Positions 55,568-62,564 of a stretch of DNA of 64,000 nt are shown in pieces; the stretch's first letter is position 1, and each line of letters opens with the position of its first letter. This DNA is from Pyrinomonadaceae bacterium (GTDB taxonomy: Bacteria > Acidobacteriota > Blastocatellia > Pyrinomonadales > Pyrinomonadaceae): positions 62,001 through 126,000 of the forward strand of contig JAJQRF010000008.1 of assembly GCA_021228405.1 (NCBI GenBank). The letters run 5' to 3'. The translations under genes were made by a program, and so were the position numbers. The notes below the pieces were generated by a model that saw only the letters and a list, made by a program, of their open reading frames with translations, did not search any database and was not told where the DNA came from.

Positions 55568-55886
55568 TGTGTTTCTGCGGGAGACAACTGTTTTTGCGGG
55601 TCTGTCAGTTGTTTTTTTTCATCTCTCAGTTGTTTTTCTGCATCTGTCAACTGTTTTTCCGTATCTGTCAGTTGTTTTTCCGCATCTCTCAACTGTTTTT
55701 CTGCGCCTGTAGTTTGTTTTTTCGCATCTGTCAGATGTTTTTCTTCATCTGTTGATTGTTTTTTCGTATCTGACGGTTGTTTTCCCGCGTCTGATGATTG
55801 TTTTTCTCATCTGCCGCTTGTTTCTCCCCGCCTGTCAGCATTTTTTCAACGCCCGACAAATCCGATTCAACAAACATTAGGAGCAT
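55534..55886 (-). pseudogene. Possible broken coiled-coil ORF written by the 21-bp array (speculative)
   Basis: On the minus strand the array spells a heptad protein, with repeats of EKQLTDA/TEKQLTD running to a TGA at 55534. An in-frame ATG at 55886 (with the MLLMFVESDL opening) is separated from this frame by one missing base: the unit at 55800-55819 has 20 bp instead of 21. If the array is a gene, it is a coiled-coil protein carrying a single-base deletion; if not, heptad periodicity is a by-product of the 21-bp unit. There is no ribosome-binding site. Low confidence. Confidence 0.3.
55568..55840. repeat. Exact 21-bp tandem array C (about 13 units)
   Basis: The TG before the T run recurs at 55568, 55589, 55610, 55631, 55652, 55673, 55694, 55715, 55736, 55757, 55778 and 55799: eleven steps of exactly 21 bp, then one of 20. 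Units look like TGTTTTTCCGCATCTCTCAA, diverging. Sequence is unrelated to array A, although the period is the same. Confidence 0.9.
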
Positions 55887-56350: not shown

Positions 56351-57000
56351 TAAACACGCGAAGCGTGTGAGAGCGTAAAGCCCTGTGCGTGAGCGCAGGG
56401 GAAAAACGACGCGAATGACAAAGCCCGTGAAACGGGCGATAGATTTTCAAATCTGCAAATATTTTTCGTCGAATTCGATCTGATTGATCTGTAATAATTT
56501 GATGAATTCATCACGAAAACCGAATTTGGCGTGATGCTTTTCCTGATCGGCGATATAACGGCGGACGTTTTCGATTTGCGATGCGCTGACGGTGAATGCG
56601 CCGTAGCCGTTTTGCCATGAAAACTCCTTCAAAGCGGGGAAAACTTTGTGCATCCAGCCTGACGAATTCGCTTTCAGGTCGCGCAGAATATCGGATAAAG
56701 ATTCGTCGGGACGGAGCTTGGCAAGAATGTGAATGTGGTCGTCCATTCCGCCGATCTCGATTGCGATGCCGCCTTTGTTGCGGAGAATTCCGCCGATGTA
56801 TTCGTAAAGACGCGGTTTTGTTGCGGCATTTATCAAGGGCTGACGGTTTTTGGTCGAAAAAACGAGGTGATAAATCAGATTGGTAAATGATTGCGCCATT
56901 GTTTTTCTGTCGCCCGTTTCACGGGCTTGTCTGATTGTTGATCGGCATTCCCCGCGCTGACGCACGGGGCTTTATGCTGTCACACGCTTCGCGTGTTGAT
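56351..57000. mobile_element. RAYT element: transposase flanked by ~93-bp inverted REP arrays
   Basis: The left flank 56351-56443 and right flank 56908-57000 are imperfect inverted repeats about 93 bp long. From the gene outward each carries the same three hairpins in mirrored order: GCCCGT-GAA-ACGGGC type, a CCCYG...CRGGG stem, and CACGC-GAA-GCGTG. This is the arrangement of REP-associated tyrosine transposases, in which the Y1 enzyme recognises REP hairpins. Extra CACACGC-TTC-GCGTGTG copies lie at 57057-57073. Confidence 0.8.
56447..56899 (-). CDS. REP-associated tyrosine transposase (RAYT, IS200/IS605-like Y1)
   Basis: 150 aa, close to the IS200 transposase length. The HUH metal motif is MDDHIHILAKL (about 72-82), and the catalytic Tyr lies in VRRYIADQEKHH (about 117-128). 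The N-terminal LIYHLVFSTKNR is typical of Y1_Tnp. I start at ATG 56899 (MAQSFTN); the frame extends to 56965 but that would cover a REP hairpin. It probably still acts on REP sequences; in other bacteria RAYTs are domesticated and spread REPs. Flanked by long inverted REP arrays. Confidence 0.9.
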   Translation of the reverse strand: MAQSFTNLIYHLVFSTKNRQPLINAATKPRLYEYIGGILRNKGGIAIEIGGMDDHIHILAKLRPDESLSDILRDLKANSSGWMHKVFPALKEFSWQNGYGAFTVSASQIENVRRYIADQEKHHAKFGFRDEFIKLLQINQIEFDEKYLQI

Positions 57001-57348: not shown

Positions 57349-57633
57349 ATGTTTGAATGGGATATTGAAAAGGCGGAAGCTAATCTAAAGAAACACGGCA
57401 TCAGTTTTTATGAAGCCGAAACAGCCTTTGAAGATTTTTACGCAATAGAAGAATTTGACGACGAACATTCAAACGCCGACGAATCGAGATTTAAGATGCT
57501 GGCAATGTCAGCCGAAAAGATTTTAGTCGTGGTTTATACAATGCGCGGTGAAAATTACCGGATAATTTCCGCGAGAGAAGCCGAAAAATATGAGCGAGAA
57601 CTCTACGAAAAACAACGAAGCGAACAATCTTGA
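57349..57633 (+). CDS. brnT: BrnT-family toxin of a type II toxin-antitoxin pair
   Basis: 94 aa, RelE-fold ribonuclease family. Diagnostic text: FEWDIEKAEANLKKHGISFYEAETAFED at the start, DEHSNADESRFKMLAMSAEKILVVVYT (with the conserved R-x-G/S context) and ENYRIISAREAEKYERELYE at the end. BrnT cleaves RNA and halts translation. Its 3' end overlaps the antitoxin gene by 44 bp; toxin-first order is normal for brnTA. It lies 23 bp after the mcm 5' copy, so the pair was inserted between two copies of the mcm beginning. Confidence 0.9.
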   Translation: MFEWDIEKAEANLKKHGISFYEAETAFEDFYAIEEFDDEHSNADESRFKMLAMSAEKILVVVYTMRGENYRIISAREAEKYERELYEKQRSEQS

Positions 57634-57907
57634 AAAAGAATGGCATCTGGACGTGAGCGAAGCGGAATATGAAGCCTCGAAAGCGAAAGGTTTGGACGAA
57701 GAAAGTTTGTTCAAACCCGGCAGACATACGTTTCGCCGACGCGATCCTGATAAAATCATCAAACGCGATAACAAAACCGTCGTTCTGCATCTGGATGAAG
57801 AAACTTTTGAGTTTTACCAAAAACGTGCGGAAGAAAAACACACCGATTCCGTCGAAGAACAAATCAAACTCGAACTCCGCAACCTCGCCGAAAAAGAAGC
57901 GGCTTAA
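57590..57907 (+). CDS. brnA: BrnA-like antitoxin
   Basis: 105 aa. An acidic, Asn-rich N-terminus contacts BrnT, and the C-terminal half is a ribbon-helix-helix-like DNA-binding part (KTVVLHLDEETFEFYQKRAEEK, then EEQIKLELRNLAEKEA) that would autorepress the operon, as in the Brucella brnTA pair. The start overlaps brnT by 44 bp. It ends 35 bp before the mcm leader copy. Confidence 0.82.
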   Translation: MSENSTKNNEANNLEKEWHLDVSEAEYEASKAKGLDEESLFKPGRHTFRRRDPDKIIKRDNKTVVLHLDEETFEFYQKRAEEKHTDSVEEQIKLELRNLAEKEAA

Positions 57908-57981: not shown

Positions 57982-59574
57982 ATGGCAGAAAGACGCGACA
58001 AATTCGAGACTTCTTCGGGCATTGAATTGCCCAATGATTTTAATCCGAACAATTCAAAAATAGATTACGAAAACGGCATCGGCGAGGCGGGAAAGTTTCC
58101 GTTTACGCGCGGCGTGCGTCCGAATATGTATCGCGGACGGTTTTGGACGATGCGCCAGTATGCGGGGTTTGCGACCGCCGAAGATTCAAACAGACGATAT
58201 AAATATTTGCTGTCGCAAGGCACGACGGGTTTATCGGTCGCGTTCGATCTGCCGACGCAGATCGGGCTCGATTCGGACGACGCGTTGGCAATGGGCGAGG
58301 TCGGCAAGGTCGGCGTGGCGATCGATTCGCTCGACGATATGCTCACATTGCTCGACGGAATCCCGCTCGATACGGTTTCGACTTCGATGACGATCAACGC
58401 GACGGCTTCGACGCTTTTGTGTCTTTATTTAGCCGTGGCGAAAAAGCAAAACGTCAGTTTCGACAAAGTAAACGGCACGATTCAAAACGACATTTTGAAG
58501 GAATACATCGCGCGCGGAACTTATATCTATCCGCCGAAACCGTCGCTGAGATTGATTACGGATATTTTTTCGTATTGCGCCGACGAGGTGCCGAACTGGA
58601 ACACGATCTCGATTTCGGGTTATCACATCCGCGAAGCGGGTTCGACCGCCGCGCAGGAAATCGCTTTTACGCTGGCGGACGGCATCGCGTATGTCGAAGC
58701 GGCAATTTCGGTCGGTTTGGCGGTTGACGATTTTGCGCCGCGTTTATCGTTTTTCTTTAATTCACATCTGAATTTATTGGAAGAAGTGGCGAAGTTCCGC
58801 GCGGCGCGCAGGCTCTGGGCAAAGATTATGCGCGACCGTTTCGGCGCGAAAAATCCGAAATCGATGATGCTCCGTTTTCACACGCAGACGGCGGGTTCGA
58901 CGCTCACGGCGCAACAGCCCGAAGTAAATATCGTGCGGACGACGATTCAGGCACTTGCGGCGGTGATGGGCGGAACGCAATCTCTGCATACGAATTCGAT
59001 GGACGAAGCGTTAAGTTTGCCGACCGAAACGGCGGCGCGAATCGCGCTCAGAACGCAACAGGTCATCGCGCACGAATCGGGCGTGGCGGATATTGTGGAT
59101 GCGCTCGCGGGAAGCTACGCGATCGAGGAATTGACGAATCAATTGGAACAAAAAGCGGTCGATTATATCGAAAAGATCGACGGACAAGGCGGAATGCTGA
59201 AAGCCATCGAAAACGGTTATCCGCAACGCGAAATTCAGGAAGCCGCTTACGAATATCAAAAAGCAGTCGAACATCAGGACGCGATCGTGGTCGGCGTGAA
59301 CAAGTTTCAGATCGAAGAAGACGAAACGATCCCGATTCTCAAAGTCGATGAAACGATCGAACGCAATCAGGTCGAACGTCTGCGTGCGATGCGTGCACGG
59401 CGCGATCAAAAGAAAGCCGATGAATGTCTTGCAAAACTCGAAGAAGCCGCGAAAGGCACGGAAAATATGCTCCCGCGAATTCTCGACGCGGTCGAAAACC
59501 ACGTCACCGTCGGCGAAATCTCCAACAAACTAAGAACCGTCTGGGGCGAATACCGCGAAGCCGTTACTGTATAA
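57982..59574 (+). CDS. Methylmalonyl-CoA mutase, catalytic (large-N) subunit
   Basis: A 530-aa TIM-barrel subunit that rearranges methylmalonyl-CoA to succinyl-CoA with adenosylcobalamin. Text matches the family: [26 protein letters not shown] (in parts), [56 protein letters not shown], and [21 protein letters not shown]. It ends without a B12-binding domain (no DxHxxG), so the small cobalamin-binding subunit must be encoded elsewhere, as in archaea and some bacteria. It works with meaB and the epimerase at 34.7-36 kb. A second copy of its first codons lies 0.7 kb upstream. Confidence 0.94.
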
Positions 59575-59623
59575 AAATTGAGTTTGGTTACTTTTTGCAA
59601 TATGATTGATTTAGGAAAATGTT

Positions 59624-60724
59624 ATGAGTGTAAATACAGTTACAGAAATTAATAATACTCATATTCCGTTTGGACAAGTTGAAAACCAATTATTTTCGGC
59701 AGGAACTTTTCGGAAACAATTTGTCAATGAAATTTTCAAAACCGAGGCTTCTTGTTGCAACATCTCTTTCTCAGATTTTGACAATATTTTCAAATTTACG
59801 ATAGTTAATATAACTTGGGATAGGTTTTCAAATGAAATTCTTTTTAAGCTCGATTACCTAGATATTTTCTCTATCCAACTCAAACTAAATGGATATTGGG
59901 AATTAAAAGAAAAAGAAGAATTATTTCAACTTAATGATGTAGATTGGAATTTTGAAGAACAAAATAATAATCCAACATCTGCATATTTTCTCAATACCTT
60001 TCAATCAATGCTTTGTTTATCAGATAAAGTAAAAGTGGATTTTCCGGCTATTGATTATTATTTTAATATTTCAGTTCCGTTACCTCTTAACAGTATTAGT
60101 GATATATTGCAGAACCGACAAATAGCTTACAGGTTAATGGTGATTGAAAAAGCAATGCAAGTTTCTTTGCCGTTTCCCAAAAGTCTTACAGGGGAAGAAG
60201 TAGGCAACATTGCTTATTGCTTCCATGCTATTTTTGACCGCGAATTCGACTGGCTAGCAAAGCCTCAACTCGTTCCGTGGGTATCAAACGAAGAATATCT
60301 TTCTCTGTTGCCTGCAACATCTGAGCCTACAACAATCACTTTTGAATCTGAATTTGTTGTCAAATCTATATTTGGAATCGAAATAAAATTAGGATTTATG
60401 ATGGCTAGGATTGAAAAATGTGTTATTGATAATTACGCAGAAGCTAAAGAGAACCTACTTAAACTTGATGGAAGCATTGTTGAAATAAAGCAACGATCTG
60501 TTGACGGTCTGATTAAGATAATCGCGATCGATGTTCCAGAACTACCACCAAATCCTTGGAGTAAAAAACTTCAAAAGTTGATTGATTTAGATAAAGTACT
60601 TGATTCAAAGTATTTTAATAAATATCTCAATTCATTTGCCAATGCTTTTGAAGGTTTAACCGATGAGCAAAGTCAAGCAATAACAGAACGTCCGACGCTT
60701 GAAGATAAAGCCTTTAATTTTTGA
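59624..60724 (+). CDS. Unknown protein paired with a PIN nuclease, 366 aa
   Basis: AT-rich (notably richer in AAT/ATT codons than the surrounding genes), no signal peptide. The sequence is rich in Phe, Asn, Ile and Leu without recognisable motifs; blocks such as FNISVPLPLNSISDIL and VVKSIFGIEIKLGFMMARIE look like beta and helical elements. A 9-bp gap separates it from the PIN gene, so they are co-transcribed. Antitoxins of PIN toxins are normally small DNA-binding proteins, so at 366 aa this would be atypical. It may be a partner, sensor or target-recognition subunit. Confidence 0.75.
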   Translation: MSVNTVTEINNTHIPFGQVENQLFSAGTFRKQFVNEIFKTEASCCNISFSDFDNIFKFTIVNITWDRFSNEILFKLDYLDIFSIQLKLNGYWELKEKEELFQLNDVDWNFEEQNNNPTSAYFLNTFQSMLCLSDKVKVDFPAIDYYFNISVPLPLNSISDILQNRQIAYRLMVIEKAMQVSLPFPKSLTGEEVGNIAYCFHAIFDREFDWLAKPQLVPWVSNEEYLSLLPATSEPTTITFESEFVVKSIFGIEIKLGFMMARIEKCVIDNYAEAKENLLKLDGSIVEIKQRSVDGLIKIIAIDVPELPPNPWSKKLQKLIDLDKVLDSKYFNKYLNSFANAFEGLTDEQSQAITERPTLEDKAFNF

Positions 60725-60733
60725 CAAATTATT

Positions 60734-61213
60734 ATGCCAATAGTTGAATCTCCGCCAGATTTACCGCTTGCCATTGATAATAATGTTTTTACGCATTTAA
60801 GGAACAAGCAACCTTACCTGTTAGAGTATGTCAAAAAACATTTTGTGAATACAAGAAGGCTTCCCGTTATTCCATCACTAATTCTCTTTGAGTCTAATTT
60901 CGGTATTCAAAAAGCATTAGTTACAAATAAAATTTCTGCTGAACAAGCCGCCTTCCAAATTCAAGAAATCAACAAATTAGCATCAATTCACACAGTTATC
61001 GACTTTAATCAAAAAGCAGCTGAAATTGCCGCTTATATTTTTGCGAGATTATCAAAATCCGATAAAAATCAACATTGGAGAGATTTGTTCATTGCGGCTA
61101 CCGCAATTGCTAACAATTACGGTTTAGCAACACAAAATAAAAGAGATATGGAACTAATTGCCAGCCATTTACCAACAGCATTAGATTTACGAATTGCCAT
61201 TTGGAAACCGTAA
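60734..61213 (+). CDS. PIN-domain nuclease (VapC-like)
   Basis: 159 aa. The PIN active-site acids are in place: the first Asp in LAIDNNVFTHL (about 16), a Glu in LILFESNFG (about 51), and Asp residues in HWRDLFIAATAIANNYGLATQNKRDME (about 116 and 138, read in parts). The LFIAATAI-N-x-GL-x-T-x-N segment is the classic PIN pattern. VapC-type PIN proteins are RNases (often tRNA or rRNA cutters) held by an antitoxin. The only candidate partner is the 366-aa upstream protein. The AT-rich pair sits between mcm and a DUF2254 gene, likely acquired. Confidence 0.82.
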   Translation: MPIVESPPDLPLAIDNNVFTHLRNKQPYLLEYVKKHFVNTRRLPVIPSLILFESNFGIQKALVTNKISAEQAAFQIQEINKLASIHTVIDFNQKAAEIAAYIFARLSKSDKNQHWRDLFIAATAIANNYGLATQNKRDMELIASHLPTALDLRIAIWKP

Positions 61214-61220
61214 AATATAG

Positions 61221-62564
61221 ATGACGAAAAATCTAAATTATTGGAAACGTTTGACGGCGACGCTTTGGTTTTTGCCCGCTTTGCTGGCTTTTTGCGGTGT
61301 GCTCTTGGGTTTGGTGTTGGTGGCGGTTGACCGCAATATCGGCTTGAAATTCGGGAATCTGCCGTTTTTTTTCGGGGTCGAACCTTCCGGCGCAAGCAAT
61401 GTGCTGGCGATCATCGCGGGTTCGACGATCACGGTCGCGGGGACTGTTTATTCGATCACTATCGTTGCGCTGACGCTGGCTTCGACCCAATTTTCGCCGC
61501 GCATTTTGCGCAATTTTATGCGCGACACGGGCAATCAGTTCGTTTTGGGCGTGCTCGTCGGCATTTTCGCTTACTGCATCGTCGTTTTGCGAACGATCAG
61601 GTCGGGCGGTGATGAAACGACCGATTTCGTCCCGTCGATCGCGGTCGTTTTCGGCGTTTTGCTCGGTCTTTCCGGGGTCGGCGCGTTAATTTATTTCATT
61701 CATCACGTCGCCACTTCGATACAGGCAACCAGCATTATTTCAACGATCGCCGCCGAAACCGTGTCGGAGATCGAAGAAAATTATGAGTTTGAATACGACC
61801 GCATTCAGTTCGACAAAGAGATTCTGAGCGCGATGCCGCTCAAAAAATGGATAAAGATTCCATCCGACGAAACGGGTTATATTCAGAATGCCGACACGGA
61901 CGCGCTTTTCGAGATCGCGAAACGGCTCGATCTGGTCGTGCAGATGCGCCGCCGCGTCGGTGAATTTACGATCAAAGGCTTGCCGCTTTTGCAGATCGCG
62001 TCGAAGCGGGAAAACTTTGCGCCCGACGAAAATCTCATCAGGGAATTTAATGCGGCTTACGACATCGGCAATTTTCGGACGGTCGAAGGCGATGTCGCTT
62101 TCGGTTTGCGGCAGATCGTCGATATTGCGTTGAAAGCTCTTTCGCCCGCGATCAACGACACGACGACTTCGCTTTCCTGCATCGATTATCTGACCGCGAT
62201 TCTGGTTTGCCTCGCCAAACGCCCGTCCTGCCCGCCGCTCTTTTTCTGCGAAGGCGAATTGCGTCTGGTCATCAATCAACAGCGTTTCGAGGATTATTTC
62301 GATCTCGCCTACAATCAAATCCGCCAAAACGGGAGCGGAAACGTTGCCGTCATTCTGCGCCTTCTAAATTCGATGGAAGTTTTGGGCAAGGCAAATCAAT
62401 CATTTAACATCCCCGAAGAACGCGCCGAACGCCACGAACTTCTCGAAACGCAAACGCGTCTTTTGATCGGTCTGGCGGAAAGAACCATCGGTGCAGATGC
62501 CGATCTGAAAACAATTCAGCGACACTACAACCACGTCAAAGAAACACTCGAAGGCTTGAGATAA
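61221..62564 (+). CDS. DUF2254 membrane protein
   Basis: 447 aa. Four transmembrane helices in the N-terminal half (ATLWFLPALLAFCGVLLGLVLVA, VLAIIAGSTITVAGTVYSITIVALTLAS, FVLGVLVGIFAYCIVVL, IAVVFGVLLGLSGVGALIYFIHH, in pieces) and a soluble C-terminal half with ALSPAINDTTTSLSCIDYL. The ASTQFSPRILRNFMRD loop is the family signature. Function unknown; widespread and often near redox or stress genes. Starts 7 bp after the PIN gene but its G+C is host-like, so it probably predates that insertion. It is followed by a WP4 repeat. Confidence 0.85.
   Translation: MTKNLNYWKRLTATLWFLPALLAFCGVLLGLVLVAVDRNIGLKFGNLPFFFGVEPSGASNVLAIIAGSTITVAGTVYSITIVALTLASTQFSPRILRNFMRDTGNQFVLGVLVGIFAYCIVVLRTIRSGGDETTDFVPSIAVVFGVLLGLSGVGALIYFIHHVATSIQATSIISTIAAETVSEIEENYEFEYDRIQFDKEILSAMPLKKWIKIPSDETGYIQNADTDALFEIAKRLDLVVQMRRRVGEFTIKGLPLLQIASKRENFAPDENLIREFNAAYDIGNFRTVEGDVAFGLRQIVDIALKALSPAINDTTTSLSCIDYLTAILVCLAKRPSCPPLFFCEGELRLVINQQRFEDYFDLAYNQIRQNGSGNVAVILRLLNSMEVLGKANQSFNIPEERAERHELLETQTRLLIGLAERTIGADADLKTIQRHYNHVKETLEGLR

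What the first reader, a model, noticed from the sequence alone, without database searches (positions are those of the whole stretch)
59624..61213. Unknown 366-aa protein plus PIN nuclease: candidate new toxin-antitoxin or defence pair
An AT-rich two-gene unit (9-bp gap) inserted between host-like genes. The nuclease has intact PIN acids, but its only possible antitoxin is a 366-aa protein without DNA-binding motifs, far larger than VapB-type partners. That size suits a sensor or target-recognition subunit, so the pair may be an unrecognised defence or abortive-infection module.
Basis: partly seen in the sequence, partly recalled or inferred. Interest (0 to 1): 0.7.

Follow-up and report, generated by a model that had tools for sequence, protein, structure and literature searches.

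The report
Large antitoxin-like partner for RNA-cutting nuclease
Two neighbouring bacterial genes form a mobile toxin-antitoxin-like pair whose unusually large partner protein belongs to an undescribed family that, in related bacteria, is coupled to several unrelated cutting enzymes (RNA nucleases, an HNH nuclease and two kinds of protease), suggesting a common controller with swappable weapons.

Summary
A 366-aa gene (59624-60724) and a VapC-like PIN gene (60734-61213), 33% GC, sit between methylmalonyl-CoA mutase and DUF2254 genes; relatives show the empty site. The pair is conserved: 12 of 162 same-class genomes (Acidobacteriota) carry the large gene, and the matching PIN clade occurs in the same genomes except one, where a MITE-like insert broke the PIN. 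At shared sites flanking genes are 77-93% identical but the pair only 34-45%, so it turns over or diverges fast. The large protein fills the antitoxin slot: next-nearest PIN genes mostly have 80-140-aa partners. It matches no Pfam, PADLOC, NCBIfam or PDB family. Its core is shared with 390-590-aa proteins upstream of other hydrolases (HNH nuclease, C39 peptidase, retropepsin-like protease, two other PIN types), with partner-specific C-termini. Best reading: a multidomain type II-like antitoxin with a large regulatory, probably sensing, module; analogous to, but not a member of, Panacea antitoxins. Toxicity, neutralisation and phage defence are untested; no defence-island association was seen. 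Sub-threshold similarity to abortive-infection protein AbiGii is only a lead.

The parts
59624..60724 (+). 366-aa large antitoxin-like protein (called A here)
   Evidence: ORF; 12/162 class genomes have a homologue; fold model pLDDT 78.7, pTM 0.77
59657..59959 (+). N-terminal beta-rich domain of A (aa 12-112), the least conserved part (mean column conservation 0.35); candidate sensing domain
   Evidence: Secondary structure of model, conservation by domain; function inferred
60020..60550 (+). A-core (aa 133-309): helix pair plus second beta domain shared with proteins linked to HNH, C39, retropepsin-like and other PIN partners
   Evidence: hhalign E=1e-13 and 5e-22 with 8 rows; profile built without PIN-type members finds this gene at E=6e-7
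60647..60721 (+). C-terminal helix and disordered tail of A (aa 342-366; conserved R356); candidate toxin-blocking part
   Evidence: pLDDT <50 for aa 353-366; conservation 0.55; R356 nearly invariant; blocking role inferred by analogy with VapB tails
60734..61213 (+). VapC-like PIN ribonuclease, 159 aa; D15 (60776-60778), E53 (60890-60892), D117 (61082-61084), D138 (61145-61147)
   Evidence: Pfam PF01850; VapC/FitB profile and fold hits; catalytic residues
59575..59623 (+). Left junction: leader with promoter-like TTGAGT-17-TATGAT at 59578-59606 and an AGGA ribosome-binding-like site; empty-site relative G353 has 1 bp between mutase stop and DUF2254 start
   Evidence: promoter matches are not above chance in this region
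61214..61220 (+). Right junction before the DUF2254 start codon

Best explanation
The pair is a mobile type II-like toxin-antitoxin module. Shown: a VapC-like PIN nuclease with intact catalytic acids is encoded directly downstream of a large protein A of about 310-385 aa, in the place where relatives have a small antitoxin-like gene. Inferred: the PIN protein cleaves RNA and stops growth; A binds and inhibits it, most likely through its conserved C-terminal helices and flexible tail; the large upstream part (variable N-terminal beta domain plus A-core) replaces the usual DNA-binding domain and acts as a regulatory or sensing module that releases the toxin on a signal. Related proteins carry the same core upstream of C-termini matched to other hydrolases (HNH, C39 peptidase, retropepsin-like protease, other PINs), so the core is a common controller with exchangeable effectors.
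For: A and its PIN clade occur in the same genomes: 12 with A, 11 with the PIN, the only discordant one having a PIN broken by an insert with a 22-nt inverted repeat. Gaps are -4 to +29 bp in 9 loci. A and PIN distances co-vary, r=0.64, Mantel p=0.001. The PIN clade is discrete, 112-255 bits against at most 53 bits for the next PINs, whose upstream neighbours are mostly 80-140-aa antitoxin-like genes. Empty sites and lower GC than flanks in 9 of 9 loci. Partner swap: C39 in L027 and L088-L091, HNH in L026, another VapC-type PIN in L092, retropepsin-like in L109, a third PIN-like gene in L123. L026's C-terminus matches a small stand-alone antitoxin-like protein next to a homologous HNH gene on a cyanobacterial plasmid, so there the core is fused upstream of a partner-specific domain.
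Against: No toxicity, binding or neutralisation data. The fused A-PIN model gave no confident interface (pTM 0.57, tail pLDDT <50), though the alignment had only 7 rows. Sensing is not shown by any computation. The sharing of the core with L092 and L109 rests on a chain of profiles; direct scores of the PIN-type profile for them are weak.
Confidence: 0.66

Rival explanations
1. Abortive-infection defence: A is a phage sensor that normally holds the PIN effector and releases or activates it on infection.
For: A modular core with exchangeable nucleases and proteases is typical of conflict systems; rapid divergence or turnover at fixed sites (A 34-37%, PIN 42-45% against 77-93% for flanks); the four best hits of Pfam AbiGii_2 in 162 genomes are all A-core proteins in one register, E 5e-5 to 0.03.
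Against: All AbiGii_2 hits are below the curated cut-off and PIN-type members, including the window protein, give none; no defence-island association; no phage data.
Confidence: 0.3
2. Plain addiction/stability module: A is only a bulky antitoxin and the extra domains give stability or dimerisation, with no sensing.
For: VapC-like toxin, operon order, patchy distribution, empty sites; stand-alone small antitoxin-like genes exist for the HNH and C39 partners, so the core is dispensable.
Against: Retention of about 300 extra residues across highly diverged members with conserved helices suggests a selected function.
Confidence: 0.3
3. The PIN protein is a non-toxic, regulated RNA-processing enzyme and A is a positive cofactor or RNA-recognition subunit.
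For: The size of A suits target recognition; in the window the pair sits on the same strand between mutase and DUF2254 genes.
Against: Patchy presence, loss by insertion in G401 and G339, low GC and empty sites argue against a housekeeping role; in G401 A stays open after the PIN gene is broken, as expected for an antitoxin, but this is one case.
Confidence: 0.12
4. Chance adjacency of two unrelated genes.
For: None.
Against: Conserved adjacency in 9 loci in different surroundings and correlated divergence.
Confidence: 0.01

Closest known systems
VapBC type II toxin-antitoxin (VapC/FitB PIN ribonucleases)
   Same: PIN toxin with the catalytic acids, toxin gene second, short gap or overlap, patchy and mobile; PIN fold matches VapC structures
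   Different: Partner is 309-384 aa with no recognised DNA-binding domain, not a small VapB
Panacea (PanA, DUF4065) hyperpromiscuous antitoxins, PMC8832971 and PMC10440598
   Same: One domain family coupled to several unrelated toxins; in multidomain PanA antitoxins neutralisation is done by other domains and Panacea is hypothesised to be a sensor
   Different: No Panacea domain found; seen here only in one Acidobacteriota class; partners include proteases
AbiG (AbiGi/AbiGii) abortive infection, Pfam AbiGii_2 PF16873
   Same: Sub-threshold similarity of AbiGii_2 positions 210-380 to A-core proteins; two-gene operon
   Different: Scores below cut-off, none for the PIN-type members; lactococcal AbiGi and AbiGii were not toxic in E. 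coli (PMC3985639)
Small antitoxin-like protein plus HNH endonuclease pairs of cyanobacterial plasmids
   Same: The L026 C-terminus and its HNH partner are homologous to these; a like pair lies elsewhere in the window's own genome (L107)
   Different: They lack the large core

Membership tests
VapBC (type II TA) | PIN-domain toxin with conserved acidic active site | tested here: met
VapBC (type II TA) | Antitoxin gene directly upstream, short gap or overlap | tested here: met
   9 loci, gaps -4 to +29 bp
VapBC (type II TA) | Small VapB antitoxin with a DNA-binding domain (RHH, AbrB, HTH) | tested here: not met
   309-384 aa; no Pfam or NCBIfam hit for the window protein; no meaningful Pfam hit in 12 members
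VapBC (type II TA) | Toxicity of toxin, neutralisation by antitoxin, promoter autoregulation | not testable with these tools
   Needs bench work
Panacea/PanAT | Panacea (DUF4065) domain in the antitoxin | tested here: not met
   No Pfam match to DUF4065 in the 12 PIN-type members or the distant members scanned
Panacea/PanAT | Same antitoxin family paired with unrelated toxins | tested here: met
   PIN, HNH, C39 and retropepsin-like partners; that they are toxins is not tested
AbiG / AbiGii_2 | PF16873 match over the curated cut-off (25 bits) | tested here: not met
   Best 22.7 bits, for a C39-linked relative; none for the window protein
AbiG / AbiGii_2 | Remote homology of A-core to the second half of AbiGii | tested here: inconclusive
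   The four best hits of PF16873 among 162 genomes are all A-core proteins, register 210-380
Known anti-phage defence systems (PADLOC) | Match to a PADLOC model | tested here: not met
   No match for the pair; one marginal match (E 0.03) among 12 A members
Defence-island gene | Neighbourhood enriched in defence genes | tested here: not met
   79 neighbours: mainly housekeeping; eight PADLOC models hit once each, mostly helicase-type and Tn7-like
Known protein fold for A | Significant match to a solved structure | tested here: inconclusive
   No Foldseek hit with E<=1e-3; best VIA Z 5.7; weak helix-grip-like rows for aa 8-150

The most novel reading that the evidence does not exclude
A-core is an undescribed, hyperpromiscuous sensor-antitoxin scaffold, remotely related to AbiGii, that controls interchangeable nuclease and protease effectors, and whose fast-evolving N-terminal domain recognises phage or stress signals, making these pairs a modular abortive-infection system.
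Probability: 0.28. Interest if true: 0.82.

Novelty: new variant of a known kind. Interest (0 to 1): 0.62.

Why it matters
Partner swapping by antitoxins is known mainly from Panacea and a few hub domains. A second, unrelated large core coupled both to nucleases and to two classes of protease would be an independent case, would put proteases among likely toxins, and would give a tractable system to ask what multidomain antitoxins sense. It also gives testable function hypotheses for a set of uncharacterised Acidobacteriota proteins.

Tried and rejected
Tried without result: Pfam, PADLOC, NCBIfam and PHROGs for A; PDB by sequence; plasmids and phages by tblastn; IMG/VR scans; first genome-contig scan with the window protein alone. 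Structure: Foldseek against PDB and viral models and VIA-align gave nothing convincing for A; many helix-grip rows (Bet v 1, CoxG, START-like) at Z 3.5-4.6 over aa 8-150 were judged only a common arrangement. A read-through A-PIN model to look for an interface folded both parts but gave no confident docking. Considered and rejected: SecB-like chaperone (only a resemblance of strand order, no hit); Panacea membership (no DUF4065). Strict vertical inheritance at shared sites could not be shown: window and G435 are nearest but not clearly sisters, and at the guaB site L007 and L011 are not nearest to each other. A weak slr1658-superfamily hit of L109 (E 0.0035) was not used. Literature: no paper found that describes this core or C39/retropepsin toxin-antitoxin pairs; the library holds open-licence papers only.

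Full report
1. What is in the sequence. The two genes are as described: A, 59624-60724 (366 aa), and PIN, 60734-61213 (159 aa), same strand, 9-bp gap. The pair has 33.1% GC against 48.6% around it. Upstream is a methylmalonyl-CoA mutase gene (57982-59574), downstream a DUF2254 membrane-protein gene (61221-62564). The genome is an Acidobacteriota relative: the matching public records are Chloracidobacterium and other Acidobacteria bins.

2. The PIN gene. It passes the Pfam PIN cut-off; its best NCBIfam rows are VapC models, below their cut-offs; a 9-row profile hits solved FitB and VapC chains at E down to 8e-7; and its predicted fold matches VapC structures (TM-score by target up to 0.82). D15, E53 and D117 are invariant and D138 is kept in 8 of 9 relatives. 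The genome holds 15 PIN matches in all.

3. The 366-aa protein. It has no Pfam, NCBIfam or PADLOC match and no PDB sequence match. AlphaFold2 on four sequences gives a fairly confident model (pLDDT 78.7, pTM 0.77): a beta-rich N-terminal domain (aa 12-150, with helices at 26-36 and 117-132), a helix pair (155-204), a second beta domain (207-301), C-terminal helices (314-354) and a disordered tail. No convincing structural relative was found, which does not show the fold to be new.

4. The pair is conserved. A profile search of 162 genomes of the same class finds A in 12; the PIN profile finds its clade in 11, the same set minus G401. Gene order is A then PIN; gaps are -4 to +29 bp in the nine loci measured. 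G507 has the two genes at the ends of two contigs. In G339 both genes are truncated and lie on different contigs, as if an insertion had split the pair. In G401 the PIN start is still readable (MAIGNVIADTTLII) but is then broken by a short element with a 22-nt perfect inverted repeat, while A keeps an open frame. Bins G438 and G441 share identical contigs, so independent occurrences number one fewer than genomes. A and PIN sequence identities correlate (r=0.64, Mantel p=0.001, nine pairs).

5. The pair moves and changes fast. In G353 the mutase stop and the DUF2254 start are 1 bp apart, and in G436 (same genus as G435) the site also lacks the pair; G435 has a pair at this exact site. Between this genome and G435 the mutase is 89%, DUF2254 77%, PIN 45% and A 37% identical; at a second shared site beside guaB, guaB is 93% identical but PIN 42% and A 34%. 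So either unlike pairs entered the same sites or the pair diverges very fast; the trees cannot decide. The pair has lower GC than its flanks in 9 of 9 loci.

6. A fills the antitoxin slot. The next-nearest PIN genes in these genomes score at most 53 bits (against 112-255 within the clade), and those inspected mostly have an 80-140-aa antitoxin-like gene directly upstream. The C-terminal helices and tail of A are among its most conserved parts and the N-terminal domain the least (0.55 against 0.35), as expected if the C-terminus holds the toxin and the N-terminus varies; this is inference.

7. Partner swapping. Two distant relatives of A surfaced in G051 and G259, followed not by PIN but by an HNH nuclease gene (L026) and a C39 peptidase gene (L027). 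A profile of these two found further members: C39 peptidase partners in L088-L091, a different VapC-type PIN in L092, and a retropepsin-like protease (DTGAS motif; Pfam aspartyl-protease hits below cut-off) in L109. A search with AbiGii_2 added L123, followed by a third PIN-like gene, judged by eye. Homology between the two sets is solid: hhalign E=1e-13 for two rows and 5e-22 for eight, and a profile made without any PIN-type A of this clade finds the window gene at E=6e-7 and G132's at 5e-8 in whole genomes. The window region shared is aa 133-309.

8. The C-terminus goes with the partner. C39-linked members carry an extra domain (W-x-V-P-I-x-L) that also exists as stand-alone proteins of about 100 aa directly upstream of C39 genes. 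L026 ends with a helical segment found in small antitoxin-like proteins next to homologous HNH genes on a cyanobacterial plasmid and in the window's own genome. L109 carries a DUF5678 domain. So the core is fused upstream of partner-specific domains that elsewhere stand without it. This is the strongest clue to mechanism: in Panacea antitoxins, multidomain members neutralise through other domains and Panacea is proposed to sense (PMC10440598).

9. Link to phage defence. The Pfam model AbiGii_2 gives sub-threshold hits whose four best places in 162 genomes are all A-core proteins in one register, two of them also seen in direct scans. That is unlikely to be chance but weak, and the PIN-type members of this clade do not share it. 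Neighbourhoods are not defence islands, and no copies were found on phages, plasmids or viral contigs. Lactococcal AbiGi and AbiGii were not toxic in E. coli (PMC3985639).

10. Verdict. The pair is real, conserved and mobile, and is best read as a type II-like toxin-antitoxin module with an unusually large, multidomain antitoxin from an undescribed, partner-swapping family. Shown: linkage, order, near-exclusivity, homology of the core, partner diversity, empty sites. Inferred: toxicity, neutralisation by the C-terminus, sensing by the large part. Open: defence. The family was seen only in one class, but whole-genome searches could not be run outside the phylum.

Noticed in passing
window 57349-57907 (+): BrnT ribonuclease toxin (Pfam E=1e-25) with an overlapping second gene, probably BrnA, just upstream of the mutase gene; G435 also has a 94-aa ORF there (L049:8243-8527), so a second TA locus may be fixed in this neighbourhood.
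   Followed up: partly
L112, L101, L103, L114, L104, L106: Recurring pairs of an about 100-aa protein (PIWL-type domain, weak PepSY resemblance in L109) and a small C39 peptidase, overlapping genes: a candidate protease toxin-antitoxin type with no family name.
   Followed up: partly
L107 (own genome, contig C12, about 153846-154079): The window's genome also has a 120-aa antitoxin-like gene overlapping an HNH endonuclease gene, homologous to cyanobacterial plasmid pairs.
   Followed up: partly
L109:822-1235:- and L109:1240-2754:-: A-core protein with a DUF5678 domain next to a retropepsin-like protease gene (DTGAS).
   Followed up: partly
window 55589-55838: Degenerate 21/63-bp tandem repeats (TRF score up to 229) upstream of the locus.
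   Followed up: no
window 56447-56965 (-): IS200-like Y1 transposase gene.
   Followed up: no
L007/L008 and L016/L017 (G438, G441): Identical contigs occur in two bins assigned to different genera, which suggests cross-binning in the source metagenome.
   Followed up: no
L047:4279-5301:+: A 341-aa ORF without Pfam or PADLOC hit directly downstream of the G447 pair.
   Followed up: no
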